Shown here: piece by piece, positions 9,450-64,000 of the stretch
Layout of the letters: every line of letters starts with the position of its first letter
How positions within the stretch are numbered: the first letter of the stretch is position 1
Assembly: GCF_011044495.1 (NCBI RefSeq)
Contig: NZ_CP049143.1
Location: forward strand, 2,170,001 to 2,234,000
Direction of reading: 5' to 3'
Origin: Roseimicrobium sp. ORNL1
Lineage (GTDB): Bacteria > Verrucomicrobiota > Verrucomicrobiia > Verrucomicrobiales > Verrucomicrobiaceae
Length of the DNA: 64,000 bases
Position numbers and translations under genes: made by a program
Notes under the pieces: model-generated
The model's input: only the letters and a program-made list of their open reading frames with translations
What the model was told of the DNA's origin: nothing
Databases searched by the model: none

Positions 9450-9794
9450 AGGGGCGGAGAGAATACGGGGGACCGGCCCGTGCGCAAGGGAATTCTCATC
9501 CCTGCTATTTACGCTGGGAGGAATGGGAACGCAAAGCAGCGAAGCAGCAAAGGGAAAGATGGAGAAATGGAATGCTGGGAGAATGGGCAATGGAGGGCGG
9601 ATGCTTCAAGGAGTGGGGGACATTCCTGTCCCCGTTGAGGCGTCGCTAGGTCTTGAATGTGAGGCGATTTTGAGGTCCGGGCCTCTGGTGCTTTTCTGCT
9701 CACTTCCAATGCTTTGCGCTCAGGTGGGTAAGAACGCCTGACCCCACCCGTAGTCAGGCGGCAGTCAGTCACCACCATCCCTTTCCCTCTATAT
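9450..9794. other. Intergenic region between divergent genes, with one copy of a short repeat
   Basis: This 345-base gap separates divergent rpmI (minus) and the ceramidase-like gene (plus), so it must contain promoters in both directions; I could not place them confidently. It carries one copy (9616-9643) of a 28-base motif with a palindromic core GGGGACATTCCTGTCCCC. The second copy is at 11904-11931. No convincing gene is seen. Confidence 0.5.
9616..9643. repeat. 28-base repeat with palindromic core, copy 1
   Basis: GGGGACATTCCTGTCCCC followed by a GTTGAGGCGT tail. It matches 11904-11931 with one mismatch in 28 bases. The two copies are in direct orientation and bracket the ceramidase-like and VOC genes. 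Confidence 0.75.
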
Positions 9795-12174: not shown

Positions 12175-14142
12175 TCACAGGCCGTCGCGCGATGCGCCTC
12201 CTTGGGATTTCGCGATGGGGATCCCGAGGTCCACACTCAGCTTCTCCTTCAACCGGGGCACGTATTCCTTGAGGCGTTGTTCGGTGCCTTTGGCACCATC
12301 TGGTAGGGCGGCGACCTTGTCCTTCATGGACTTCAGCTTTTCCACGTGGTTGCCGAGGGCGCTCAGAGCTTCCATTGCGGTGGCGTTGCTGGTCTTCGTG
12401 GCATCAGCATCTGCGAGCAGGACTTGAAGGGCAGCGTTGGAGTCCTCGTCATTGCCATAAGTGGCCAGGGCATTCGCAGCAGCGATGCGTACGCTGGGGC
12501 TTTCGTCCTTCAAGGCTGTAACCAGAGCATCGCGGCCTTGTTTCACGGCCTCGGCTCCGCGGATGTGCAGGCCGATCGCTCCCCAATAGCGGACGGCCGA
12601 AGGCGTTGCAGAAGCCTTCCGTTCGCTCTTCGGCGGATCTATTAGCTTCAACCCCGACATGTGGAATTTGGCATCCTTGACCAAATCAGAGTTGTCACTG
12701 GCAGCGCTCGCGGAGGCAAACACAAAATCGAAGTCGTAGGCATCGTCCGAGGCAAAGACATCTCTGGGAGAGCGGTCACCACTTAGTCTCAACCGCTCCG
12801 CCTCAGGGATGAAGCCAATGTCTCTCGTGTCCTTCATTTGTTTTCTGTGCGCGGCTCTCAGTTTGATGAGGGTGTCCAGAGAGGCTGGATCTTCCGCGAG
12901 ATTCTTCACCTCATGCGGATCACTTTGCAGATCGTAGAGCTCTTCTACTGGCTTGGTGGGTTTCCAGAACATCGCCTGCTCCGGTGTGGCTCTGCCCTCG
13001 TCATACGCCTTCTTCCACACCTGGGCGGTGGGCATCTGCATCATGTAGTTGATATGCTGGCCGTAGGGCAGGTGTGGCATGTACTGGCGCAGGTACACAT
13101 AGCGACCATCCGTCACGCTGCGTACCAGGTCCTGCCGTTCATCCATTCTCCCACGGAAGCCAAATAGGAATGCAGGAGCGGGCTTCGCATGAGAGCCGCA
13201 GAAGGCGCGGCCCTGCAGGTAGTCCGGCGCAGGCTGACCGATGATGCTCAGCAGGGTGGGGGAGAGATCCACGAAGCTGATGAGTTCCTCCGACTTCGCG
13301 CCGGGCGCATAGCCCTTCGGCGCCAGGTGCTCCCACTTCTTCGGGAAATGGACGATGAAGGGCACGCGCAGGCCGCTGTTGTAGGGCCAGCGCTTGTGGC
13401 GGGGCATGCCGGCGCCGTGGTCACCGTAAAAGAAGACGATGGTGTCCTCCGCGAGTCCCGCGTCCTCCATTTCCTTCAGCTTCTCGGCAAAGAGGCCATC
13501 CATTTCCGTGATGTTGTCCGCGTATTGCGCCCAATCGTGGCGGGACTCCGGTGTGTCCGGATGGTACGGCGGGACTTGGGCCTTCGCGGGATCATGCACC
13601 AGCTTGTGGCCGGGCTGGCGAATCTGGCTCTCGTGGGTCTCGGTGAAGTTGAAGATGGCGAAGAAGGGCTGGTCTTTCCCGCGGTTCTTCCAGTGCGCAT
13701 TCTTTCCGCTGGCATCCCACACCGCGTCTTTGCCTTCCGTGGTTTTGGTTTTCTGCAGGTTGTAGTCCTCCTTCGAGTTGTTGGTGCAGTAGTAGCCCGC
13801 CTCGCGCAGCATCTGGGGATACATCTTCACACCCTCGGGCAGGGGCACACTGCTGCGCATGTGCTCGCCACCCGTCGAGGTCGGGTACATGCCGCTGATG
13901 ATCGTGGTGCGTGCGGGTGCGCACACGGGGGCGTTGGACCAGGCATGCTGGAAAAGCTGCGAGCGCTTCGCGAAGGCGTCGAGATTCGGCGTCACCGCGT
14001 ACGCATCGCCATAGCAGCCCAGGTCCGGCCCGATGTCCTCCGTGGTGAGCCAGAGAATATTTGGCCGGTCCGCGGCGCCCAGGCGCTGGGTGACACTGAG
14101 GCAAATCAGGGCTGCGAGGAGAAGGAAGGTGCGTGTGGTCAT
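12175..14142 (-). CDS. Secreted sulfatase with C-terminal HEAT-like repeats
   Basis: A 655-residue arylsulfatase-family enzyme with a signal peptide (residues 1-24, start 14142 chosen for it). The N-terminal metal residues appear in 'RPNILWLTTEDIGPDLGCYG'. The formylglycine motif is C-x-P-x-R in 'CAPARTTIISGMYP' (about residues 74-87), so the Cys must be matured by a formylglycine-generating enzyme or anSME elsewhere in the genome. Further blocks are 'FFAIFNFTETHESQIR' and 'DTIVFFYGDHGAGMPRHKR'. The last ~130 residues look like HEAT/armadillo repeats ('DALVTALKDESPSVRIAAANALATYG'), an appendage found in some Planctomycetes and Verrucomicrobia sulfatases. It probably desulfates a polysaccharide outside the cytoplasm. 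Confidence 0.92.
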   Translation of the reverse strand: MTTRTFLLLAALICLSVTQRLGAADRPNILWLTTEDIGPDLGCYGDAYAVTPNLDAFAKRSQLFQHAWSNAPVCAPARTTIISGMYPTSTGGEHMRSSVPLPEGVKMYPQMLREAGYYCTNNSKEDYNLQKTKTTEGKDAVWDASGKNAHWKNRGKDQPFFAIFNFTETHESQIRQPGHKLVHDPAKAQVPPYHPDTPESRHDWAQYADNITEMDGLFAEKLKEMEDAGLAEDTIVFFYGDHGAGMPRHKRWPYNSGLRVPFIVHFPKKWEHLAPKGYAPGAKSEELISFVDLSPTLLSIIGQPAPDYLQGRAFCGSHAKPAPAFLFGFRGRMDERQDLVRSVTDGRYVYLRQYMPHLPYGQHINYMMQMPTAQVWKKAYDEGRATPEQAMFWKPTKPVEELYDLQSDPHEVKNLAEDPASLDTLIKLRAAHRKQMKDTRDIGFIPEAERLRLSGDRSPRDVFASDDAYDFDFVFASASAASDNSDLVKDAKFHMSGLKLIDPPKSERKASATPSAVRYWGAIGLHIRGAEAVKQGRDALVTALKDESPSVRIAAANALATYGNDEDSNAALQVLLADADATKTSNATAMEALSALGNHVEKLKSMKDKVAALPDGAKGTEQRLKEYVPRLKEKLSVDLGIPIAKSQGGASRDGL

Positions 14143-14310
14143 GGCTGGGAGCGTGCGTGCGGTGTGGTGTAGTGCGGGCATTAACGCGAGCCAGCCTGCC
14201 AGCTTTCGGAGGATTCCGCCGTCAAGCTCCGCCATTTTCCTTCCATACACACATCACTCCCCTGAACCACCCTTTGCCGTTTGCGGCATAACCTGCTTAA
14301 TTTTGCCTGC

Positions 14311-15288
14311 ATGCCCGAATTCTCCCTCCAGCACAAGGTCAAACGACCCACCTCCATCACCGTGGGGGATTTCTTTGAGCGAAACCGGGATCCGCTGAAG
14401 ATGAAATTGCTTGGGCCAGACGCCGGATTTGTCAGGAAGATCAATGAGCCCTCCGTGAACCGCCCCGGTCTGGCGCTTAGCGGTTTCTTTACCTACTTCG
14501 CTTACAAACGTATCCAGGTCATCGGCAACTCAGAACTCTCGTATCTCAATCAGCTCGATCCCGAGCTGGCTGAGACACGCTTCCGCCAGCTCTGTCTGGC
14601 GGATATCCCCTGCCTCGTGGTGGCCCGGGAGAAGCGCCTGCCCTCGAACTTCCTGGACATTGCCAATGAGTGCGGGCTGGCCGTCTTCCAGTCGTCGATG
14701 GTGACCATGAAGTTCCTGAATGCGGCGACCATCCGGCTGGACTGGGCCTTTGCACCCACGACGGTGATTCACGGCTGTCTCGTGGACGTGCAGGGCTTGG
14801 GCATCTTCATCCAGGGACCCAGCGGCAGCGGCAAGAGCGAGGCCGTGCTGGGACTGCTGGAGCGTGGCGCCAGCATGGTGGCGGATGACGCGGTGCACTT
14901 CCGCCTCATCGAGGAGCGAGAGGTCCAGGGGCGAGCTCCTGACCTGACACGAAACATGATCGAGGTGCGCGGCATCGGCCTGCTGAATGTGGCCGCCATC
15001 TTCGGCGTGGGTGCCGTGCGGTTGAGCAAGCGGCTCGATCTGATCATCAAACTGGTGCCTAATCCGGACCTGGCCGAGGTGGAGCGCTTCGACACGACTT
15101 CACACACGGTCACGGTCCTGGGTATCGACATCCCCATCCTTCAGGTGCCGGTCATCGTGGGGCGGGACGTCGCCGGCCTCATCGAAATCGCGGCGCTGAA
15201 TCACAAGCTCCGCACCTTCGGCTACAACAGTGCGGCCGAGTTCGACCAGCGGCTTTTGAAAAAGATGGCGGACGAACAGAGTGCCTGA
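14311..15288 (+). CDS. hprK: HPr kinase/phosphorylase
   Basis: HprK phosphorylates the regulatory Ser of HPr with ATP and reverses this with phosphate. The 325 residues match the usual length. The C-terminal kinase core has the Walker A 'GPSGSGKS' at 169-176, preceded by 'IHGCLVDVQGLGIFI' with the conserved His154. The HPrK signature follows as 'EVRGIGLLNVAAIFG', then 'RLDLIIKLV'. The N-terminal ~130 residues are the HPrK N-domain. The ATG at 14311 is preferred over a TTG 30 bases upstream. It is followed by HPr (182 bases) and enzyme I (88 bases further). No EII permease is nearby, so the set most likely serves regulation or an EIIA encoded elsewhere. Confidence 0.96.
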   Translation: MPEFSLQHKVKRPTSITVGDFFERNRDPLKMKLLGPDAGFVRKINEPSVNRPGLALSGFFTYFAYKRIQVIGNSELSYLNQLDPELAETRFRQLCLADIPCLVVAREKRLPSNFLDIANECGLAVFQSSMVTMKFLNAATIRLDWAFAPTTVIHGCLVDVQGLGIFIQGPSGSGKSEAVLGLLERGASMVADDAVHFRLIEEREVQGRAPDLTRNMIEVRGIGLLNVAAIFGVGAVRLSKRLDLIIKLVPNPDLAEVERFDTTSHTVTVLGIDIPILQVPVIVGRDVAGLIEIAALNHKLRTFGYNSAAEFDQRLLKKMADEQSA

Positions 15289-18046: not shown

Positions 18047-18979
18047 TCAATCAATGGCCACCACCACCTTGCCGCGTCCGGCGCGGGCCTTTGCTTTTCC
18101 AGCATAGGCATCGGGAGCCTCTTCGAACGGGACTACGACATCGACGATTGCCTTGAGCGTGCCTTCGTCCAATTGACTCGCGATCCTGGAGAGCTGGTAG
18201 TGGCTGGGCTCGACGATAAAGAAGGCATCCTTCACGCGCTGCTCGGCGGTTTCCTCGCTGGCCGCGGCGATGGTTACCAGGCGTCCGCCAGGTTTCAGCA
18301 GTGACCAGGAGCGATCGAGGGTCTCGCCGCCCACGCCATCGAAGATCACATCCACCAGACCATCGATGGCCTTGGTGAAGTCTTCATCCTTGTAGTCGAT
18401 GACCTGGGTGGCGCCCAGTTCCTTGAGGAAGGCTTCGTTTCGTTTGGACGCGGTGGTGATGACTTCGGCACCGATGGTACGGGCCAGTTGAATCGCGAAC
18501 ACACCCACCGCACCGGAGCCGCCATGGATGAGCACACGCTCACCGGACTGAAGTTGCGCCCTGTCATGCAGTCCCTGCCATGCGGTGAGAGCGCCAATGG
18601 GTACTGCTGCTGCCTCCTCATGACTGAGCCGACGCGGCTTGGTTGCAATAAAGGCTGGAAGCGTGAGGCAGTAGCCCGCAGTGGCGCCCTCTTCGAACCA
18701 GTCATTCAAGCCGTACACCTCTTCGCCCACGCGGAAGGCATCCACCCCTTCGCCGAGGGCCTCAACTATGCCGGAGAATTCGTGACCCGGGATGGGAGCC
18801 ACGCGTGGGGAGCCATCCTTCTGGTGATGGGTGGGGTACCAGAGCAGTTCCGTGGGAGTGATGCCCGCAGCCTTCACCTGGATGAGAATCTGTCCCGGAC
18901 CGGGGTTTGGTTTCGGTGCATCCTTCGTCAGTTCAAATGCCGCGTTTGCATCGGTTTGAACCATTCTCATCGCCTTCAT
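18047..18979 (-). CDS. NADP-dependent zinc-type alcohol dehydrogenase/quinone oxidoreductase family protein
   Basis: A 310-residue medium-chain dehydrogenase/reductase. It has the N-terminal GroES-like fold ('PNPGPGQILIQVKAAGITPTEL', 'PIPGHEFSGIVEALGEGV') and a Rossmann fold with 'GERVLIHGGSGAVGVFAIQLARTIGAEVITTAS'. The nucleotide-binding glycines are GGSGAVG. The catalytic zinc ligands of true alcohol dehydrogenases are not evident, which fits quinone-oxidoreductase-like members that reduce enones or quinones with NADPH. The ATG at 18979 is chosen by family length; an ATG nine bases later is also possible. The gene reads toward ptsI. Confidence 0.9.
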   Translation of the reverse strand: MKAMRMVQTDANAAFELTKDAPKPNPGPGQILIQVKAAGITPTELLWYPTHHQKDGSPRVAPIPGHEFSGIVEALGEGVDAFRVGEEVYGLNDWFEEGATAGYCLTLPAFIATKPRRLSHEEAAAVPIGALTAWQGLHDRAQLQSGERVLIHGGSGAVGVFAIQLARTIGAEVITTASKRNEAFLKELGATQVIDYKDEDFTKAIDGLVDVIFDGVGGETLDRSWSLLKPGGRLVTIAAASEETAEQRVKDAFFIVEPSHYQLSRIASQLDEGTLKAIVDVVVPFEEAPDAYAGKAKARAGRGKVVVAID

Positions 18980-56256: not shown

Positions 56257-56295
56257 ACGTTGGATAAATTCTATTTTGGTCTGTACCTTTGCAGT

Positions 56296-56580
56296 TCAAG
56301 CGTGCGCCCCGTTTCGTCTCCGCTCTGTGAGCTGCTTTTCCCTGGCTTTGGTGGCGAGCTTTTCGAGGGTGCGAACTTTTTCAGCCCGCGATCTCAGGGT
56401 CGAAGGGATCATGTGATTTTTCATCCACAGGGGATGACCGCTCTTTCCTTTCCAGTCACCCAATTGCAACCATGAAGCCGTGCCTCTGATGTTCTCATTT
56501 CGGGCAACGTACTCCTCTGCGGCAGCCAGGTGCAGGTCGAGCAACTCAATCTGTTCTTTGATTTTCCGCGCCTTATTCAT
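56296..56580 (-). CDS. Small hypothetical coiled-coil protein
   Basis: A 94-residue, strongly basic protein. An N-terminal helix 'KARKIKEQIELLDLHLAAAEEYVARNEN' precedes a Trp-containing linker, and a C-terminal helix 'LRSRAEKVRTLEKLATKAREKQLTERRR' is rich in Arg/Lys. No family recognised. The start at 56580 gives a compact protein. Confidence 0.55.
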   Translation of the reverse strand: MNKARKIKEQIELLDLHLAAAEEYVARNENIRGTASWLQLGDWKGKSGHPLWMKNHMIPSTLRSRAEKVRTLEKLATKAREKQLTERRRNGAHA

Positions 56581-56658
56581 GGGTGAACGCTGCACGCGTG
56601 ACGTTTGGCATCAGAGGCGCTGTTCGGCAAGCCAATCAGCGTCCGCTCAATGGAGGGG

Positions 56659-57162
56659 TCAGGCATCTGGTTTCCAGGAGTGAACAATCTCTCCATTTTT
56701 TCTCAAGAATGCTGAGCGCAGCCGTCCCGCGCTGCAAAGCTGATCAAACAACGCATAGTAGGCCGGCTCCAACTGGGACCAATCGTCGAATTGTTTGAAT
56801 GTGCCTTCGACGCCGTTGGACCAAAGATCGCCTTTGGGGTGGCCGGTGACCGGCTGATCTTCCCAATTGCCACCCATGTGACCGCGCCAGTCGGGGCCTT
56901 TGCTTGAGCTGAGAACTTTGGTTTGGTGGCCTTCGGGTGCAAATGCATGAAGTTCTCTCGACGCGTCTTCCACGTAAAGGCGACCGCAGTGCGGGCATTG
57001 GTAGCACGTCCGGACGAATGAAAACCAGGAATCCACTCTTTTGCCCGACTCGATCATATCTTCGAAATCTTCCCAATCCTGATCGGCGACCACATGCGCC
57101 TTGTAGGACAGGAAGTCGGAATTGTCAGGAATGACCGCGCCGCACTTGCATCGGATCTTCAT
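56659..57162 (-). CDS. Hypothetical protein with N-terminal zinc ribbon
   Basis: A 167-residue protein. Cys pairs 'CKC' (residues 5-7) and 'CYQCPHC' (about 54-60) could bind one zinc in a ribbon. The rest is acidic and Trp-rich ('DWRGHMGGNWEDQPVTGHPKGDLW'). It resembles the short zinc-ribbon hypotheticals found beside polymorphic toxin immunity genes, but nothing here proves that role. It is in the same minus-strand row as its neighbours. Confidence 0.6.
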   Translation of the reverse strand: MKIRCKCGAVIPDNSDFLSYKAHVVADQDWEDFEDMIESGKRVDSWFSFVRTCYQCPHCGRLYVEDASRELHAFAPEGHQTKVLSSSKGPDWRGHMGGNWEDQPVTGHPKGDLWSNGVEGTFKQFDDWSQLEPAYYALFDQLCSAGRLRSAFLRKNGEIVHSWKPDA

Positions 57163-57364
57163 CTCTGATGCCTAACACGGAGATCGTTTGCCGACATGAA
57201 AAAAACAACCCTTCCATAGCTCGCAAGTATGTGGGCGCTCTCCAGGTATTCTTCCATGCGACTGGAAGAACGTCAGGAGTGCCAGGTGTCTTGTCCCTTG
57301 GTGCTCACGACGCAAGGATCTGATTGTGCAGAGTGGATGTGCGCCGCCGCAGGATAAGCCAGTT

Positions 57365-57952
57365 CTATTTTTTGGCTGGCGTTGACGGCATCGGAACAAT
57401 CGCAGGTCCGGCCACATCATTGCGCCGGCTGGTCAGACTTTGGAGCGGACGGGCTGTTTCTTTCCAGGTGTGTTGCAGATCCATGTAGCGCTCGTTGATC
57501 CACAACAACACGGGCGACATGCGCTCCTGGATGGGTGGTTCCCAAATGTATCTTAGCCATATCTCCCGCCCGCCGAGTGTCGCGGCCGGAAATTCACTGA
57601 TGTTCGATTCCCAAAAAACCTCACGCCGCGTTTCACCGGGTGCCAGGGTGAAGGATTCTTTTTGCTCGTAGGAATTCGTGGTAAACAGCGGTCCCCGGGG
57701 GCCCATGCCGCCGTCCGGGTACAGGTCTATCCACATGAGGCCGTGAACGACCACGGGAAAGCGGGATTCGTTTTTGATCTCGTAGTGGAGGCAGTGCCTC
57801 CAATCTTTCTCTGGGTCCTCAGGGGTTACGAGTTCGACGGAGCGGAGGCTCAAGGGATTCTGCACCATCCATTGGGCGGCGATGTAGAAGACCAGCCCCG
57901 TGATGACGAGGGCCACTCCCAGGAGCAAGAGTCGGCGGATGTGGCGGCGCAT
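57365..57952 (-). CDS. Single-pass membrane protein, hypothetical
   Basis: A 195-residue protein with an N-terminal membrane helix (residues about 8-28, 'LLLLGVALVITGLVFYIAAQW'). An extracytoplasmic region follows, rich in Trp, Arg and Glu, with 'HCLHYEIKNESRFPVVVHGLMWIDLYPDGGMGPRGPLF'. This strand-rich pattern could be an Ig-like fold. No family recognised. It is the first gene of the minus-strand row, about 50 bases from the tRNA-Ser fragment. Confidence 0.6.
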   Translation of the reverse strand: MRRHIRRLLLLGVALVITGLVFYIAAQWMVQNPLSLRSVELVTPEDPEKDWRHCLHYEIKNESRFPVVVHGLMWIDLYPDGGMGPRGPLFTTNSYEQKESFTLAPGETRREVFWESNISEFPAATLGGREIWLRYIWEPPIQERMSPVLLWINERYMDLQHTWKETARPLQSLTSRRNDVAGPAIVPMPSTPAKK

Positions 57953-58004
57953 TCAGAAGACTCTGCCGAATGGTGGCTGTAACACCTTCATCCTCAGTAG
58001 CGAG

Positions 58005-58065
58005 TGGCGGAGGGAGAGGGATTCGAACCCCCGGATACTTGCGCATCAACGGTTTTCAAGAACGT
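58005..58065 (-). pseudogene. 3' fragment of tRNA-Ser(UGA): left attachment junction of a mobile element
   Basis: Read on the minus strand, this is the 3' half of a serine tRNA: the loop CTTGAAA with anticodon TGA (58056-58058), the 3' anticodon strand ACCGT, a variable arm, the T arm GGGGG-TTCGAAT-CCCTC, acceptor strand TCCCTCC, discriminator G and CCA ending at 58005. The 5' half (acceptor GGAGGGA, D arm) is missing; the five bases before the loop keep only four of five pairs. The integrase gene starts about 100 bases away on the side of the missing half. This is what tyrosine integrases leave when an element enters at the anticodon loop. The intact tRNA copy is expected at the far end of the element, outside the window. 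Confidence 0.88.
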
Positions 58066-58165
58066 TGTGTATGTCGCAAAATCAAGGGAAAGTGCGGTGT
58101 GGTGCAGATTTGGTGCATCTTTTTTCTTGTAAAGATGGAGAGAACTGGGCACATCTAGGGAAATC

Positions 58166-59350
58166 ATGGCCGTTGGAAAAGTCACTCTCTCTCCCTACAA
58201 AGTAACCGGACGCCCTCAAAAATGGCAGGTGGCTTGGCCGAATCCCGAGCCCGGCAAGCCCCGACTTCGGAAAAGGTTCATCAGCAAGACAGATGCCAAA
58301 CAGTTCAAATCGGAAAAGGACGTCGAGATCCTCAACGATGGGAGGGAAGTAGCTGGATTGCCTGATTCGTGGACTCGGGATGCGGCATGGGCACGGAAGC
58401 AATTGGAGCACGCGGGCGTCACACTTCGCCATGTGGTTGAGGATTACTTACATCGCCATCGCGTGGCACAGAGGAGTACTGGCCTAAAGGATGCGGTGGA
58501 AGATTACCTAGAAGCTCGCGAGAATGACGGACTAGCAGCGCGTTCGCTTGGTGACGCCCGCGCCCGCTTACGGCGCTTCTATGGCGATATGCCCACGGAT
58601 GCAAAGGTGAGTGATGTGCAGAAACGGGACATGGAAGATTGGCTTGCCGGGCTGAAGGTGGCGGCACAGACCAAGCGGAACTTCCAGCGTGTACTTCACA
58701 CGTTCTTCCAGTGGGCAGAGGGTAGGGGATACTGCCAAGAAAATCCCGCCGCGTTGAAGCGAGCCACAACTAAAAAAGCAAAGACGGCTGTCCGTCCGGT
58801 TCAAATTTTCACCCCAGGTGAACTGCGCACGGTTCTGGAGAACTGCCCCCGGGAAATTCTTGCCTTCCATGTTCTAGGGGCGTTTTGCGGTATCCGAAGC
58901 GCCGAGCTTGAACGCTTGGATTGGGCAGATGTAGATCTTAAGCGTGGGCAGGTGGCTGTTTCGCCCGAACAAAGCAAGACTGCTTCCCGGCGATTTGTGC
59001 CCGTGCCAGAAGCCGCACGGCAATGGCTCGCAGCAGTCGCAGAGCAAAGTGGTCCCGTCACACCGCACAATGCCGTCATGTGGCTTTGTAGGCAATTCCA
59101 TCGGGACCTCGTGAAGCATCATAACCTGGAATGGAAGGACAACGGGTTGCGGCACTCTTTCGCTTCTTATTCCCTCGCCATGCATGAGGATGCGCCCCGT
59201 GTGTCCCTGTGGCTTGGGCAAATGTCGCCTAGCGTAGTCTTTCGCCATTACAGGGAGCGAGCTACTAAAGAGGATGCGGAGGCTTACTTTGCAGTAGTTC
59301 CCGCAAACGAGCCCGGCAACGTGGTTGCCTTTAGCGAGCGAGCGGCGTAG
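58166..59350 (+). CDS. int: Tyrosine recombinase/integrase of the tRNA-Ser element
   Basis: A 394-residue phage-type integrase that would catalyse integration and excision at tRNA-Ser. It has an N-terminal arm-type region, a core-binding SAM-like domain near residues 100-200 ('GLKDAVEDYLEARENDGLAARSLGDARARLRRFY') and the catalytic domain at 215-380. Catalytic residues are Arg in 'FCGIRSAELERLDWADV', Lys in 'SPEQSKTASRRFVPV', the box II Arg in 'DNGLRHSFASYSLA' with Asn where the first His is common, and the Tyr nucleophile in 'FRHYRERAT'. The usual GH before it reads GQ ('WLGQMSP'). An AGGGA ribosome site precedes the ATG by a few bases. It is oriented into the element. Confidence 0.93.
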   Translation: MAVGKVTLSPYKVTGRPQKWQVAWPNPEPGKPRLRKRFISKTDAKQFKSEKDVEILNDGREVAGLPDSWTRDAAWARKQLEHAGVTLRHVVEDYLHRHRVAQRSTGLKDAVEDYLEARENDGLAARSLGDARARLRRFYGDMPTDAKVSDVQKRDMEDWLAGLKVAAQTKRNFQRVLHTFFQWAEGRGYCQENPAALKRATTKKAKTAVRPVQIFTPGELRTVLENCPREILAFHVLGAFCGIRSAELERLDWADVDLKRGQVAVSPEQSKTASRRFVPVPEAARQWLAAVAEQSGPVTPHNAVMWLCRQFHRDLVKHHNLEWKDNGLRHSFASYSLAMHEDAPRVSLWLGQMSPSVVFRHYRERATKEDAEAYFAVVPANEPGNVVAFSERAA

Positions 59351-59427
59351 GCGCGCCGTCGCGCCCTTGGACCATTTGTACTCATTTTTCGTTAGTTTGC
59401 ACATACCCCGATGTGCAAGTTGGCACC

Positions 59428-59655
59428 ATGAGGAAAACCGTGCCTGATGCTGCAAAGATAGAGCCGTATCTAAACATTCGCCAGATTGCCGAACATTTCT
59501 GCATCGCGGAGAAGACCGCCTATCGCTGGTCAGAGGATGGCACACTGCCCCACTACAAGCTCAATGCTCGCGTTCTCCGCTTTAAGTTGAGCGAATGCGA
59601 AGCGGCAATGCAAAAGCGCCGTGTCATGTCGGTAAGCGAAGCTCGCGCAGCTTAA
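59428..59655 (+). CDS. Excisionase/AlpA-like helix-turn-helix protein
   Basis: A 75-residue DNA-binding protein of the MerR/excisionase (HTH_17) type: 'LNIRQIAEHFCIAEKTAYRWSEDGTLPHYKLNARVLRFKLSECEAAM'. It has a helix-turn-helix followed by the wing and Phe-Lys-x-x-E helix typical of AlpA/Xis. Right after the integrase gene, it may direct excision or activate the element. The ATG at 59428 is preferred over a GTG 15 bases upstream. Confidence 0.85.
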   Translation: MRKTVPDAAKIEPYLNIRQIAEHFCIAEKTAYRWSEDGTLPHYKLNARVLRFKLSECEAAMQKRRVMSVSEARAA

Positions 59656-59724
59656 GCCAGTGATCTGTTTAGCGGGCTCATTGACGCGTCATTGTATCAT
59701 AATCTACTACACCAACACGTTGCT

Positions 59725-59982
59725 ATGTCCTACCTCATCACTCAATCGGCAGTCGCACGAGCCCTCCAAACGACACCTTACACCGTTAGGAAGCTTGTGG
59801 ATCAAGGTCACATTCCCGCAGTGCGGATGTCCTCCAATCGCTTCAGATTCGATCCTTTGTCAGTGGCCCTAGCCCTGGACTACCTCCCAACCCTGGAGGG
59901 CTCCAAATCAGACACGCTATCCCGCCGGGATCCAGTCGCAGTGCTGGGAGCCTCTCACCGATTGATGCATGGCAGGCGGTGA
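59725..59982 (+). CDS. Helix-turn-helix protein, second in the row
   Basis: An 85-residue MerR/excisionase-like protein: 'YLITQSAVARALQTTPYTVRKLVDQGHIPAVRMSSNRFRFDPLSVALALDYL'. The wing and final helix are again visible. It is distinct from its neighbours in sequence, so the row is not a recent tandem duplication. Probably a regulator of the element. Confidence 0.8.
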   Translation: MSYLITQSAVARALQTTPYTVRKLVDQGHIPAVRMSSNRFRFDPLSVALALDYLPTLEGSKSDTLSRRDPVAVLGASHRLMHGRR

Positions 59983-60000
59983 GGTTGACGATCTGCCACT

Positions 60001-60050
60001 AGTGACCACTAGAGACAATTAGCGACCATCAGTTACCATTAGTTACCACA
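60001..60050 (+). promoter_or_regulatory. Five tandem 10-bp repeats, iteron or operator array
   Basis: The 50 bases before the third HTH gene are five consecutive decamers of the form AG-N-N-ACCA-N-N: AGTGACCACT, AGAGACAATT, AGCGACCATC, AGTTACCATT, AGTTACCACA. The 10-bp period places each copy on the same face of the helix, and it is not a multiple of three, so it is not coding. The array ends at the ATG of the gene at 60050. It is likely a multi-site operator, or iterons for replication of the excised element. Confidence 0.8.
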
Positions 60051-60334
60051 TGAGTTACGAAACACATTCGCCGCAGAAATTGCTCACGCGGTGCGAGGTA
60101 AGCGCACTACTTAGAATGTCGTCCCGCGCGGTTGCTCGCCTCGCTGCACGAGGAAGCCTCTCTGAAGTCAGGGTTTCACCGCGCAAGGTGTTCTACCGCG
60201 CCGCAGACGTTCTCACGGTGATGGGCGAGACGCCAGAGCACCCATCCCCACCGAAGCGCACGAAGCACGAGCGGGATCTTGAATGGGAGTTTGCGGATCA
60301 TCCCTACCCGATTCGAGACGTCACCCCCACCTGA
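60050..60334 (+). CDS. Helix-turn-helix protein next to the decamer array
   Basis: A 94-residue protein with 'LLTRCEVSALLRMSSRAVARLAARGSLSEVRVSPRKVFYRAADVLTVM', an excisionase/MerR-like helix-turn-helix. A basic, acidic tail ('PPKRTKHERDLEWEF') follows. The ATG at 60050 sits at the end of the decamer array, so this protein is a good candidate for binding it, either to control itself or to start replication. Confidence 0.78.
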   Translation: MSYETHSPQKLLTRCEVSALLRMSSRAVARLAARGSLSEVRVSPRKVFYRAADVLTVMGETPEHPSPPKRTKHERDLEWEFADHPYPIRDVTPT

Positions 60335-60340
60335 CACAAG

Positions 60341-60380
60341 AAAGCCGCGCCCTGGTAATCCCTACCGTGAGCGCGGCTCT
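60341..60380. promoter_or_regulatory. Hairpin ahead of the primase gene
   Basis: AGCCGCGC (60343-60350) pairs with GCGCGGCT (60371-60378), with an inner GGTA/TACC stem. It lies between the third HTH gene and the primase-like gene and has no T-run, so regulation by RNA structure is as likely as termination. Confidence 0.5.
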
Positions 60381-60395
60381 CAAACCAACCGTACG

Positions 60396-61367
60396 ATGCA
60401 AACAACGCGTCAACTTCCCGCAAAGATTCTTGACCTACTGAGGAACGCACCGAAGGCGAGCGGCGGAGTGCATAGCTACCTCTACCGAGTGGCCGCATTT
60501 CTCAAGCCGTGGTGCAGCGAGGATGAATCATTCCAACTTTTAAAGCAGGCGACGGCGAACTGTGGTAGGCGAGTACCTGATCGCGAGATCTGGCAAGCCG
60601 TCCGAAACTCCAAGAACGATTGGAAGCCGGGACACACCGGCAACCTCTCGCTCCCAAAGCTGACTCCATTGGAAATCGAGTTGGCAAGCTGGCCGCGTCG
60701 TGACTACGAGGCCATCGAGCGCATCGCCGCCGATGGATTCTCACGCGCCGATCTGTGGGAGCACTCCCCTGTGAGGCTTGAGGACGAGACGACAGACGCG
60801 GAAAGCATGATCGAAGCTCTGTTTCCTGGTGATCCTCTTATTTGCGTGGGACGGAAAGTACATGCAGCGCGCACCGCTCACCGTTCCACTTTCCGGGGGC
60901 GGTTTGGTGCCTTGAGTTATGTGGTACCGAGCGCGATGTCCAAACCCATTGGCAAGACTCAGGATGGGCAAGATTCGGCTCGCTCGCTTCAGAACTGCGG
61001 CCCTCGGCAATGGCACGTTCTGGAATGTGATTTCAAACAGGAAGGGGAAATCGGGCGTATCTTAGAAACCCACTCGCTCACGGTGCAGGATCTTTGCGCC
61101 GCAGTTCTGTGGCACCTTGCCCACGAGCGCCCCATGGTGTGTGCGGTACATTCCGGCGGGAAAAGCATTCACGGTTGGTATCCCGCTCACGGCGTCACAG
61201 AGGCACGCACACGAGCTTTTCACCGGCTGGCAGTGTCGCTCGGATGCGACCCCATCACACACAACCCCGTGCAATGGGTGCGCCTCCCTGGGGGCACACG
61301 GTACCCCTCCAAGGTTCGCCAGTCCGTACAGTACTTCAATCCTGCAGCATTACCCGATAGTGGATAA
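60396..61367 (+). CDS. Primase-like replication protein
   Basis: A 323-residue protein whose C-terminal half matches the archaeo-eukaryotic-type primase folds of phages and satellites: an acidic motif 'LECDFKQEG' (E-x-D form), a turn 'VHSGGKSIHGWYPAHG' (the S-G-G-K-S-x-H nucleotide-binding motif) and 'VQWVRLPGGTRYP' near the end. The N-terminal ~110 residues are helical and hold 'LYRVAAFLKPWCSEDESFQLLKQA'. It would make primers, or prime and copy the element. The ATG at 60396 is chosen after the hairpin. It is followed by the DUF3987 gene 64 bases on. Confidence 0.78.
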   Translation: MQTTRQLPAKILDLLRNAPKASGGVHSYLYRVAAFLKPWCSEDESFQLLKQATANCGRRVPDREIWQAVRNSKNDWKPGHTGNLSLPKLTPLEIELASWPRRDYEAIERIAADGFSRADLWEHSPVRLEDETTDAESMIEALFPGDPLICVGRKVHAARTAHRSTFRGRFGALSYVVPSAMSKPIGKTQDGQDSARSLQNCGPRQWHVLECDFKQEGEIGRILETHSLTVQDLCAAVLWHLAHERPMVCAVHSGGKSIHGWYPAHGVTEARTRAFHRLAVSLGCDPITHNPVQWVRLPGGTRYPSKVRQSVQYFNPAALPDSG

Positions 61368-61431
61368 ACCCTGCGCGACGCATCCACCCACACAAGACTC
61401 ACATCCCACCTTACGACACTTCCCGCACAAC

Positions 61432-63051
61432 ATGCCCAGTTATATCTCAGCACCAGATCGAGAACCTCTCCCACCAATTCGCGCTCGGACACCCCTTAAG
61501 CGAAAGCCCCGTGCAAACGATGCCGCCACGGATGCCAACGCAAGTTTCGCGGAGGATGCCTGCCCGATAACTCCCACAACCCCGATAACTCCGGGAATGC
61601 AGGAAGTAGCTCCAGCCAACCCCGACGAATTCCCAATTCACTGCCTGCCACCACTCCTGCGCGACATTGCAGAAGAAGTAAGCAAGGCGAGCCTGGTGCC
61701 TGTAGATCTTACTGCTTCCGTTGCCCTGGCCACGGCGTCTGCGGCATTGGGGGCTGGACTAGCCGTCGATACTTCAGGGCACAACTCGTCACGCGGAAAG
61801 ATTCTGAGAGGCAACATTTTCCTCATCGGCATTGCAGCAAGCGGAACAGGCAAGGGGCTGGCATTCGATGCAATCACCGGGCCTTACTTTCGTCTTGAAC
61901 AAGAGGTAATCGAATCTTGGGAGTCTAGCCAACTCCCGGAGGTCAAAGGGCAGATTAGCCTTCTTACTGCGGAGAAGGAGCGCGAGATGAAGGCGGCGGG
62001 CGGCAAGGAGCGCTCACAGCCAGCGCGCGACGAGGCAATTAGAAAAATGACCGCGATTGAGCGGGACTTGGAAGCCATGAAAAAGCTGCTGAACCCTCCA
62101 CGGCTAGTGCTCGGTGACACTACACAGGAGGCGGCCATCTTGTACCAGAGCCTTGCACCTCATGAGGCGATTGCGAGCCTGAGCGGTGAAGCGCGAAGCA
62201 TTGTGGACATCCTCATGGGACGCTATGGCAAAGGCGGGAACACGGATGAGCAGTTCTACCTTCAGGGCTTTTCGGGTGATCCTGTGAGGGTGACGCGCAT
62301 GGGGAGAGAATCTCAGGGACTCAAAAGGCCATGCCTTAGTTTGCTCTGGCTTCTTCAGCCCGACAAAGCGAAAAGCATCTTCTCCACGCCTGCCCTTGTC
62401 GAGAGCGGTTTCGCGCCGCGTTGCCTCTGGCTTAATTGCCGCGCTGAGGCGCAAATGATTCCTCTTTTCCCCTATCTCGCAAAAGTAGAGACGCTGGACA
62501 GTTGGGAAGAGTTGCTAAGGGATCTTCATGAGGAGTTTCGCGCCTCCACCGAGCCAAACAGATTGATCCATGTGTCACGCGAAGTGTGGGATGCGTTTCG
62601 GGTTTACCATGACTCATATGTGCCCCGTCGCAGGGGTGGAGGGGATTTGCATGACATTGCCAGCTTCGCAGCTCGCTGGCACGAGATCGCTTGGCGAGTG
62701 GCAATTGTCCTCCACGCCGGGAAGCACGGGGTTCGCGCTGCGGATGTACCAATGAGCCTAGACACCGCACAAAAAGCAATTGAGCTCGTGGATTGGTTCG
62801 CGGGCCAACTCCTGCCAATGCTCACAGAAGGGCGCGAGGTTCGTCAGGCAGAATTCCTCTCCAAGCTCCATGCCACGTTAGAGCGAAGGCCAGCCGGTAC
62901 GCCCATCCACATTCTTGAGAAGAACCACGGATACCCTCGGGAACAGATCCGGGCGCTCGCGAAGGACCCGGCCAACAAGGTAGAGATCACCGAGCATCAG
63001 AATCGCAACGGAGGGCCACGCGCAACTCTCGTGAAGAGCTTGGCGGCATAG
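61432..63051 (+). CDS. DUF3987 replication ATPase-like protein
   Basis: A 539-residue DUF3987 (YfjI-type) protein. The core begins 'LPPLLRDIAEEVSKASLVPVDLTASVALATASAALGAGL'. The P-loop is 'LIGIAASGTGKGLAFD' (about residues 137-152); the usual Ser/Thr after Gly-Lys is Gly here. Walker B and sensor-like parts are 'LVLGDTTQEAAILYQSL' and 'ASLSGEARSIVDILMGRYG'. The C-terminal ~60 residues are winged-helix-like. Members are thought to help replication of phages and islands together with a primase, as its neighbour suggests. Confidence 0.85.
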   Translation: MPSYISAPDREPLPPIRARTPLKRKPRANDAATDANASFAEDACPITPTTPITPGMQEVAPANPDEFPIHCLPPLLRDIAEEVSKASLVPVDLTASVALATASAALGAGLAVDTSGHNSSRGKILRGNIFLIGIAASGTGKGLAFDAITGPYFRLEQEVIESWESSQLPEVKGQISLLTAEKEREMKAAGGKERSQPARDEAIRKMTAIERDLEAMKKLLNPPRLVLGDTTQEAAILYQSLAPHEAIASLSGEARSIVDILMGRYGKGGNTDEQFYLQGFSGDPVRVTRMGRESQGLKRPCLSLLWLLQPDKAKSIFSTPALVESGFAPRCLWLNCRAEAQMIPLFPYLAKVETLDSWEELLRDLHEEFRASTEPNRLIHVSREVWDAFRVYHDSYVPRRRGGGDLHDIASFAARWHEIAWRVAIVLHAGKHGVRAADVPMSLDTAQKAIELVDWFAGQLLPMLTEGREVRQAEFLSKLHATLERRPAGTPIHILEKNHGYPREQIRALAKDPANKVEITEHQNRNGGPRATLVKSLAA

Positions 63052-63060
63052 ATTGGGGAA

Positions 63061-63090
63061 CCCGCAGAGGGGTAGAGCCGCCTCTGCGGG
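63061..63090. terminator. Hairpin between converging genes
   Basis: A perfect 10-base stem CCCGCAGAGG / CCTCTGCGGG with a 10-base loop, placed exactly between the stops of the DUF3987 gene and the opposing 30-codon gene. There is no T-run on either side. Confidence 0.6.
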
Positions 63091-63095
63091 ACGTG

Positions 63096-63188
63096 TTACT
63101 TTTTGGTTTTGTAGCTCGTACGGGGATGCCGCTTAGCTACGCTGGGGCGAATGTAGCGCCCGGTAATTGCAGACTTGAATTTTGCCAT
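63096..63188 (-). CDS. 30-residue basic protein, phage type
   Basis: On the minus strand an AAAGGAGG Shine-Dalgarno sequence stands five bases before an ATG at 63188, the strongest ribosome site in the whole window. The frame reads 30 residues: 'MAKFKSAITGRYI' then 'RPSVAKRHPRTSY' and a Lys-rich end. It has no acidic residues. Small proteins with the pattern S-A-x-T-G-R-x-x-x-x-x-x-A-x-R-H-P-x-T are common in actinobacterial phages, from memory. Function unknown. Confidence 0.72.
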   Translation of the reverse strand: MAKFKSAITGRYIRPSVAKRHPRTSYKTKK

Positions 63189-63525
63189 GCTTACCTCCTT
63201 TCTGCGAGCATCATACCGCAATCCGCACGCTGATCAAGTGAACAGCAAATGTTTCACAAAGTCGAAAGAAGAGGGTAGGGGTATCTTCTCAAACCTGAGA
63301 AGGAATCTCTTTTTTGAGAGGGAAAGCGGCGCGGCCCTCGGGTCAAGTGCTCAATTTTTGTGAGCGAGTTTTTCGCCAACCTTACATTCTCAAACCTGAG
63401 GGGCGGACAGCCCTATTTCCCTTCTGTCAGCCAAACAAAACGCCCGCACTGGAAGGGCGTCAAAAAGTGTCAATCGACGGGCTGACACCGCCCAATATGG
63501 ACACTCCAGCACCCACTTTACACAA
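63189..63525. other. Intergenic region of the element with repeated 14-mers
   Basis: A 337-base gap that should hold the promoters of the 30-codon gene (minus) and the last gene (plus). It carries two copies of TTCTCAAACCTGAG (63286-63299, 63387-63400) and a hairpin at 63443-63466. No further gene is convincing. Confidence 0.55.
63443..63466 (-). terminator. Hairpin with T-run on the minus strand
   Basis: ACGCCC and GGGCGT form a short stem with a 9-base loop; on the minus strand it continues TTTTGTTTGG. No minus-strand gene has been seen upstream of it in the window, so its role is unclear. Confidence 0.4.
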
Positions 63526-64000
63526 ATGAGCAACATTCCCGAATTCATGAACATCTACGACTCTCGCCGCCTTTGCAAAAGAGGCTACGCGGTGCGCCGC
63601 GCGGCGTGGGTCGAGGACGTGGCAGCACCCGTGCCATACACGACCGGAAAGCGGGTCACACAATGGATCACCTATGGGGGCGGCGAGCTCTTTTACATGC
63701 GCAAGACAGACGGCAGCCCGCCGCATGTCATCAAGGCGAGCGAACTAGGCAAGGCAGACTTTCTCGCTCAGGACTGGACGATCCGCGATGAGAACTGGCA
63801 AGAGCAGCCCGCTCCCGGTCCCCAGCCTGAGCCCCCGCAAGACGGAGCACCCGTTCATCCCCCTCTTCCCGTACCTCGCCCCGTCGTGCCTGGCAGTGGC
63901 GGTGACAGTGATTCGGGGGCCGGTGGCGGCGGTGGAGGAGCCGGTGGCGGCGGGGGCGGTGGTGGTGGTGGTGGTGGATCCGGCGGTGGCACGAGCGGCG
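63526..64000 (+). CDS. Protein with DUF2829/Tad2-like start and Pro/Gly-rich tail, cut by the window end
   Basis: At least 158 residues, open to the last base. The first ~95 residues resemble DUF2829 (Thoeris anti-defense 2-like): a short helix, then 'RGYAVRRAAWVED', 'QWITYGGGELFYMRK' and a closing 'LGKADFLAQDWTIRD' (the family ends in 'DxxAxDWxx'). After it comes a Pro-rich stretch and a run of Gly with few other residues ('GAGGGGGGAGGGGGGG'). Tad2 proteins from phages block the Thoeris defence by binding its signal molecule; the match here is by eye. The Gly-rich tail may instead point to a virion-type fusion. Confidence 0.55.
   Translation, partial: MSNIPEFMNIYDSRRLCKRGYAVRRAAWVEDVAAPVPYTTGKRVTQWITYGGGELFYMRKTDGSPPHVIKASELGKADFLAQDWTIRDENWQEQPAPGPQPEPPQDGAPVHPPLPVPRPVVPGSGGDSDSGAGGGGGGAGGGGGGGGGGGGSGGGTSG

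What the first reader, a model, noticed from the sequence alone, without database searches (positions are those of the whole stretch)
58005..64000. Integrative element in tRNA-Ser(UGA), possibly a phage satellite
A tRNA-Ser 3' half, ending exactly where the anticodon loop begins, abuts a tyrosine integrase. The genes then run int, AlpA/Xis-like HTH, two more HTH, repeat array, primase-like, DUF3987 ATPase, small phage-type gene and a possible anti-defence gene. No capsid, terminase or tail gene is seen in the 6 kb available. The order resembles satellites of the PICI type, which are little described in Verrucomicrobiota.
Basis: partly seen in the sequence, partly recalled or inferred. Interest (0 to 1): 0.78.

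Follow-up and report, generated by a model that had tools for sequence, protein, structure and literature searches.

The report
Satellite-like mobile island in a tRNA gene
A 16.8-kilobase mobile island sits inside a serine tRNA gene of this bacterium, rebuilds that gene, carries its own integration, copying and probable anti-virus genes but no recognisable shell or transfer genes, and so may travel as a passenger of a phage, although no helper has been shown.

Summary
The tRNA-Ser fragment has a second copy 16,822 bp to the right, inside an intact tRNA-Ser(UGA). Paired arm-type sites lie inside both ends. A same-genus genome has one intact tRNA there and no element at that site. Gene order: integrase, AlpA-like HTH, HTH, iteron-like array, HTH, an archaeo-eukaryotic primase that Pfam and PHROGs do not recognise, DUF3987 helicase, then cargo including methyltransferase, AbiJ-like and SRAP proteins. 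Twenty selected ORFs show no conjugation or phage structural gene; one HTH has a weak TerS-family match. The primase family occurs in 47 of 288 sampled genomes of the order and in many viral contigs, some with terminase genes. Three of the four gene kinds of the PICMI satellite model are present; fis is not the site. Satellite life is the best guess, about 0.5, unproven: five phage families gave no hit in this genome, and a sister element in the same tRNA carries phage head and tail genes.

The parts
58002..58064 (-). attL-side direct repeat: displaced 3' part of tRNA-Ser(UGA), tRNA nt 32-88 at 58005-58061
   Evidence: 62/63 identical to G000:C1:2244824-2244886; 57 nt identical from the tRNA 3' end
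58100..58117 (+). paired integrase arm-type sites TGGTGCA-N4-TGGTGCA (left); the right pair lies at G000:C1:2244711-2244728
   Evidence: 2 matches in 20 kb, one at each end, 0.01 expected, pattern chosen after seeing it; same layout with a variant motif in sister element L063
58166..59350 (+). tyrosine integrase, 394 aa
   Evidence: PF00589 4.3e-10; PHROG integrase 2.6e-35
59413..59655 (+). AlpA/excisionase-like HTH_17 protein, 80 aa
   Evidence: PF12728 over cut-off; phrog_66 excisionase/regulator 1e-7
59725..59982 (+). second HTH (MerR/AlpA-like) protein, 85 aa from ATG
   Evidence: PF12728 5.6e-5, below cut-off (scanned from an upstream TTG); phrog_66 2e-4, phrog_57 terminase small subunit 0.005
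59996..60049 (.). array of 5.4 direct 10-bp repeats between two HTH genes, candidate origin or operator
   Evidence: TRF; 0 of 300 resamples reach 5 copies at period 8 or more
60050..60334 (+). third HTH (excisionase-like) protein, 94 aa, directly upstream of the primase
   Evidence: phrog_7735 excisionase 5.6e-7
60396..61367 (+). archaeo-eukaryotic primase with a PriX/PriCT-like domain in front, 323 aa
   Evidence: AF2 pLDDT 88.4; VIA Z 10.4 to S-2L PrimPol 6zp9, 10.3 to RepB' 3h20, N-part Z 7.5 to PriX 4wyh; motif residues invariant in 17 sequences
61360..63051 (+). DUF3987 helicase-like ATPase, possible GTG start overlapping the end of the primase gene
   Evidence: PF13148 8.1e-50; phrog_2373 DNA helicase 7.6e-32; overlap
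63096..63188 (-).
   Evidence: translated; no match in phages or plasmids
63526..64000 (+). start of a 378-aa Gly-rich protein (ends at genome C1:2234662): weak Tad2-like N-terminus, Gly-rich linker, CBM_14-like repeats
   Evidence: Tad2-like E 0.064, below cut-off; CBM_14 7.1e-8

Best explanation
This is a 16.8-kb integrated mobile element that most likely lives as a phage satellite. Shown from sequence: it sits between a 63-bp repeat of the tRNA-Ser(UGA) 3' part, supplies the 3' part that rebuilds the tRNA, and has paired arm-type sites at both ends. Inferred: the integrase, with an AlpA-like protein as directionality factor or activator, excises it as a 16,822-bp circle. The archaeo-eukaryotic primase and its coupled DUF3987 helicase then copy it, perhaps from the iteron-like array. 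With no recognisable capsid, terminase or conjugation gene of its own, it is carried by an incoming phage, and its cargo (methyltransferase/nuclease protein, AbiJ-like protein) protects the host from competing phages, as reported for PICMIs and P4-like satellites. The integrative-element part stands at about 0.97; the number below is for the satellite life.
For: Att repeat and rebuilt tRNA. Arm-type sites at both ends, and a variant pair in the sister element. No element at this site in the same-genus genome G428. PF00589, PF12728 and PF13148 all over cut-off, three of the four kinds of the PICMI model. No conjugation family and no phage structural family, apart from one weak TerS-family match to an HTH, in the 20 ORFs selected. 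Defence-type cargo. Primase family shared with viral contigs, some with terminases. No VirB4 in the genome. A 7.5-kb element with a related primase in tRNA-Ser(UGA) of G560 shows what may be a minimal form.
Against: No helper trace in the same genome: no TerL PF03354, PF03237 or PF05876, no HK97 capsid PF05065, no portal PF04860. PICMIs use virulent phages, so this does not exclude a helper. The sister element in the same tRNA carries a head protease and a tape-measure gene, which suits prophage descent equally well. No packaging site or convincing TerS is recognisable. The primase has no tblastn match in 50,697 phage records, and a profile was needed to reach viral contigs. No near-identical copy was found that would show recent movement: best integrase 63%, best primase 47%, each among 288 sampled genomes of the order.
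Confidence: 0.5

Rival explanations
1. Remnant of a temperate phage: a prophage of the same integrase lineage lost its structural genes and filled with cargo, keeping the integration and replication module. It may still excise but does not depend on a helper by design.
For: The sister element with a 63%-identical integrase in the same tRNA carries S49 head protease, scaffold-like and tape-measure genes. Relatives of the primase occur in viral contigs with terminase genes. All InversePrim elements analysed in PMC5862659 were prophages (passage).
Against: No decayed structural gene in the 20 ORFs scanned, one weak TerS-family match aside. In 12 chromosomal loci with the primase, none of the 25 most-matched PHROGs is annotated as structural, though 39 further families were not shown. 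The sister shares only integrase and AlpA with this element by tblastn and has O and DnaB genes instead.
Confidence: 0.25
2. Integrative mobilisable element: it excises, replicates, and is moved by a conjugative system in trans through an oriT.
For: Kazlauskas et al. report conjugative and mobilisable elements among integrated elements with such primases (PMC5862659, passage). Distant DUF3987 relatives occur on two small plasmids, which PLSDB predicts to be non-mobilisable.
Against: No relaxase or conjugation family in the 20 ORFs. No VirB4-type ATPase PF03135 in the genome; relaxases elsewhere in the genome were not searched.
Confidence: 0.13
3. Dead genomic island that no longer excises; the genes are kept for defence alone.
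For: No near-identical copy elsewhere in the sampled genomes. Integrase box II reads NGLRH rather than the usual HxxRH (the usual form is recalled).
Against: The same Asn is in the sister integrase (NGMRH). The core frames are open. att repeats and arm-type sites are intact.
Confidence: 0.1

Closest known systems
PICMI (phage-inducible chromosomal minimalist islands, Vibrionaceae; PMC10803314, abstract and passages)
   Same: integrase, AlpA and DUF3987-type primase-helicase core; defence genes in the part beyond the primase; no capsid-remodelling genes recognised
   Different: attachment in tRNA-Ser, not next to fis; separate AEP primase gene; no PF19263 in the helicase; 16.8 kb against 6.1 kb for PICMI115; not a Vibrio; no helper known
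Cryptic integrated elements with PrimPol-PV1 primases (Kazlauskas et al. 2018, PMC5862659, passages)
   Same: AEP primase with DUF3987 helicase, tyrosine integrase, tRNA site, no phage or conjugation genes recognised
   Different: primase and helicase are separate, apparently overlapping genes, and the primase has no hit in Pfam, PHROGs or NCBIfam
InversePrim AEP family (PMC5862659, passages)
   Same: PriX/PriCT-like domain in front of the AEP domain; His kept in motif II
   Different: helicase not fused; DUF3987 rather than RepA here (AAA_25 in the viral relatives tested)
PICI (PMC6092414, abstract and passages)
   Same: integrase, AlpA-like regulator, replication module, accessory genes, no structural genes recognised
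   Different: sister element in the same site has phage structural genes; PICI orthologues not tested
Element L063 in tRNA-Ser(UGA) of genome G418 (same family)
   Same: 63% identical integrase, 37% AlpA, same tRNA, same arm-site layout
   Different: O and DnaB genes, head protease and tape-measure genes, different cargo

Membership tests
Phage satellite (general, PMC13376191 abstract) | lies between attL and attR repeats | tested here: met
   63-bp repeat, 16,822 bp apart
Phage satellite (general, PMC13376191 abstract) | 7 to 20 kb with integrase, regulatory and replication genes | tested here: met
   16.8 kb; integrase, HTH_17, DUF3987 and primase fold
Phage satellite (general, PMC13376191 abstract) | no viral structural genes | tested here: met
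   20 selected ORFs without a head, tail or packaging family, except one HTH with TerS-family E 0.005; very short ORFs were not scanned
Phage satellite (general, PMC13376191 abstract) | mobilised in helper phage particles | not testable with these tools
   no reads or virion data; five phage families absent from the own genome
PICMI | integrase (PF00589 among others), AlpA (PF05930, PF12728) and primase (PF13148, PF19263) genes | tested here: met
   PF00589, PF12728 and PF13148 over cut-off, no PF19263; model text names both primase families
PICMI | integration next to fis | tested here: not met
   site is tRNA-Ser(UGA)
PICI | conserved organisation with integrase, replication module and master regulator | tested here: inconclusive
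   all three kinds have candidates; which HTH is a master regulator is unknown
PICI | att sites never occupied by prophages | tested here: inconclusive
   G418 has an element with head protease and tape measure in the same tRNA, but no terminase, portal or capsid family in the 16 of its 18 ORFs scanned with PHROGs, beyond a weak portal-family match (E 5e-4) of the protease
PICI | size about 12-15 kb | tested here: inconclusive
   16.8 kb
PICI | orthologues exclusive to PICIs | not tested
   -
InversePrim AEP | PriCT-1 domain precedes the AEP domain | tested here: inconclusive
   N-part resembles PriX, a relative of PriCT-1 (Z 7.5; relation from PMC5862659), but no PriCT Pfam hit even at E 10
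InversePrim AEP | His in motif II, Arg in motif IV | tested here: met
   H259 and R296 invariant in 17 sequences; assignment to the motifs is mine
InversePrim AEP | fused RepA helicase (95% of members) | tested here: not met
   helicase is a separate DUF3987 gene
Integrative mobilisable or conjugative element | relaxase or conjugation gene in the element | tested here: not met
   none in the 20 ORFs scanned; no VirB4 in the genome

The most novel reading that the evidence does not exclude
The element belongs to a so far unnamed class of phage satellites of Verrucomicrobiota. Its hallmark is a stand-alone, inverse-order archaeo-eukaryotic primase whose helicase partner is swapped freely (DUF3987, D5/SF3 or RepA-type), and the same primase is used by the phages it may parasitise, so satellite and helper share one replication toolkit.
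Probability: 0.35. Interest if true: 0.75.

Novelty: new variant of a known kind. Interest (0 to 1): 0.52.

Why it matters
My searches of the open-licence PMC library for Verrucomicrob* with 'phage satellite' (2 papers) and with prophage, satellite and integrase (4 papers) showed no paper describing a satellite in this phylum by its title or start of abstract (listings only, not read). A defined element with att sites, an element-free relative and a marker primase found in 47 of 288 sampled genomes of the order makes satellite biology testable there. The pairing of one primase family with three helicase families, seen even inside one supported clade of three, is a clear case of modular replication in mobile elements. 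A primase that Pfam, PHROGs and NCBIfam do not recognise may also help explain why such elements go unannotated.

Tried and rejected
Helper search: TerL (PF03354, PF03237, PF05876), HK97 capsid PF05065 and portal PF04860 in the own genome, all negative, with hits in 3 to 6 of 14 control genomes. Other capsid or terminase families were not tried. G418 has TerL-type genes at four places. I compared its tRNA-Ser element with 40 kb around each of the two PF03237 places only, and found no protein similarity there.

Iterons as a conserved origin: TRF upstream of prim in 17 loci showed no shared array in the output I could see; that output was cut in the middle. The origin role stays a guess.

Tad2-like domain: PDB sequence search gave nothing of use, the structure model was poor (pLDDT 38.8) and no phage match was found. 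Left open.

The single-sequence DUF3987 query against viral contigs confirmed no relative, and DUF3987 matched 2 phage and 2 plasmid records distantly. The single-sequence primase query matched none in phages or plasmids. Only the profile reached viral contigs. The profile's PDB sequence search matched nothing.

Bulk PHROG scans list only the 25 most-matched families (25 of 64 and 25 of 99), so a lone structural gene in the 12 chromosomal loci could be hidden. The element ends of most of these loci are unknown. In one search, 49 loci were used: 17 from genome searches, 21 of 80 viral loci and 11 of 13 genome-contig loci.

The VIA search aligned only Foldseek's own candidates, so structural families not listed there are not excluded.
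Full report
Place and bounds. The window is G000:C1:2170001-2234000 of a 7.96-Mb single-contig genome. A DNA search of the genome with the right end of the window found a second copy of window 58002-58064 at C1:2244824-2244886. The repeat finder gives 63 bp, 62 of 63 identical, 16,822 bp apart. ARAGORN finds no tRNA in the window and an intact tRNA-Ser(UGA) at the second copy. The left copy equals tRNA nt 32-88, from the first base of the anticodon loop to the 3' end.

Integration machinery. Inside the left core lies TGGTGCA-N4-TGGTGCA, and the same pattern lies inside the right core. These are the only two matches in 20 kb with one mismatch allowed (0.01 expected); the pattern was chosen after seeing the repeat. 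I read them as integrase arm-type sites. The closest integrase among 288 sampled genomes of the order (63%, genome G418) sits beside the same tRNA-Ser(UGA), in an element with a 60-bp repeat 14,961 bp apart. That element has the variant pattern TGRTACM-N4-TGATACA inside both ends and no third match in its 20 kb (pattern again read off first). The agreement in layout between two diverged elements is the stronger argument for the sites. In the same-genus genome G428 the tRNA is single and intact; its right flank is 89% identical over 874 bp and its left flank 85% over 262 bp, ending before the tRNA, and no element protein matches in the 17 kb fetched there. G428 does carry a distant primase relative elsewhere (39%). 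The region directly left of the tRNA also differs between the two genomes (about 1.7 kb here, about 0.35 kb there), which the element does not explain.

Replication module. The 323-aa product between the third HTH gene and DUF3987 has no Pfam hit, even at E 10, and no PHROGs or NCBIfam hit. Seventeen sequences, this one included, align with invariant E210-x-D212, S257-x-H259, D285 and R296, which fit motifs I to IV of archaeo-eukaryotic primases as described in PMC5862659 (passages); motif I there is hhhDhD/E, so the first acid here is Glu. The AlphaFold2 model has pLDDT 88.4. Foldseek's top hit is the S-2L PrimPol (E 1.3e-3, no match at 0.001 or below, probability 1.00). VIA gives Z 10.4 (rmsd 3.5, 156 residues) to 6zp9, 10.3 (3.4, 145) to RepB' 3h20 and 10.1 (4.0, 163) to 5of3; residues 7-98 match PriX 4wyh at Z 7.5 (3.4, 82), which alone would be weak. 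The order, PriX/PriCT-like then primase, is that of the InversePrim family, whose analysed elements were all prophages. A DUF3987 reading frame with a GTG start overlaps the end of the primase gene. Kazlauskas et al. predict DUF3987 to be a helicase family of such elements.

Who else has it. The primase is found in 47 of 288 sampled genomes of the order at E <= 0.001; the weakest of these are short and marginal. Of 13 genome-contig hits, 10 carry titles of Verrucomicrobiota groups. Next to the primase, 49 loci were compared by single-linkage BLASTP: 6 carry DUF3987-type genes, 27 fall in one cluster of which 3 of 3 members tested are AAA_25, 2 are of D5/DUF5906 type, 5 form another viral group, and 9 are unassigned; for one of the 9, L046, tblastn finds a DUF3987 relative cut by the contig end. 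None of the 21 viral loci is in the DUF3987 group; 2 of them are among the unassigned. In a tree of 25 chromosomal and 24 viral primases the labels need 7 changes, at least 3 forced by well-supported branches, and one supported clade of three (L032, L070, L071) has three different helicases. The place of the window's own primase is unresolved. Viral loci hold terminase genes: phrog_15 in 3 of 90 proteins of 10 loci, and GpA in L120 and L123. Among 108 proteins of 12 chromosomal loci, none of the 25 most-matched PHROGs is annotated as structural; 39 further families are not shown.

Cargo. Right of the core lie a Gly-rich protein, a HicB-like protein, a TPR-like protein (below cut-off), two SRAP proteins, an Xre-type regulator, a 905-aa protein with HSDR_N_2 and N6_Mtase domains (MADS2 model 379.6 bits, cut-off 720, so not called MADS2) and, on the other strand, an Abi_C/AbiJ-like protein. 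This is defence-type cargo by family name only. Several ORFs have no hit at all.

Function. Sequence shows an integrated element with intact ends and open core frames. Excision, replication and spread are inferred. Satellite life is favoured because three of the four gene kinds of the PICMI model are present, size and content fit the general description of satellites (PMC13376191, abstract and passages), no transfer apparatus is recognised, and the replication gene is shared with phages. It is not shown: no helper gene was found by five families in this genome, and the sister element's head protease and tape-measure genes fit prophage decay as well. PICMIs are moved by virulent phages, so a missing prophage does not decide the case. 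That P4-like satellites carry antiviral systems is from an abstract in a listing (PMC9122126).

Papers. PMC5862659, PMC6092414, PMC10803314 and PMC13376191 were seen as abstracts and found passages, not in full; other papers as listings only.

Noticed in passing
G000:C1:3284000-3303999 (L031): Second integrase plus DUF3987 element candidate in the same genome (integrase read by eye): an 820-aa DUF3987 protein (38% identity), a 2096-aa protein with kinase, AAA_11/12 and MTES_1575 nuclease domains, and a ClpB-like AAA protein. Possibly a defence island; bounds not found.
   Followed up: partly
L063 (G418:C1:5152000-5171999): Element in the same tRNA-Ser(UGA) with head protease, scaffold-like, tape-measure, O and DnaB genes; 16 of its 18 ORFs were scanned with PHROGs and gave no terminase or capsid family and only a weak portal-family match of the protease. 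Either a decayed prophage or an odd satellite.
   Followed up: partly
L070:8221-15774 (G560): A 7.5-kb element in tRNA-Ser(UGA) with a 33-bp repeat: primase and D5/DUF5906 helicase, with an integrase, an HTH and a Sel1-like protein read by eye; close to a minimal satellite.
   Followed up: partly
L006:5563-5592, 9639-9683, 18639-18683 (window 61563-61592 for the first): A motif of about 30 nt around GGGGTTAAAGGAGTTATCGGGG occurs three times in the element, once inverted inside the DUF3987 gene. Unexplained.
   Followed up: no
L006:11745-12623 and 13722-14750: Two SRAP proteins with weak winged-helix-like matches in their C-terminal parts. The second keeps the Cys2, NAKLE, E and H motifs; the first lacks the NAKLE-type motif (motif roles recalled).
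   Followed up: partly
window 58166-59350: Integrase box II reads NGLRH instead of the usual HxxRH (recalled), and the G418 integrase has NGMRH.
   Followed up: no
L006:263-2001 (window 56263-58001): The host region left of the tRNA differs from the same-genus genome by about 1.4 kb in length, perhaps an older insertion or deletion.
   Followed up: no
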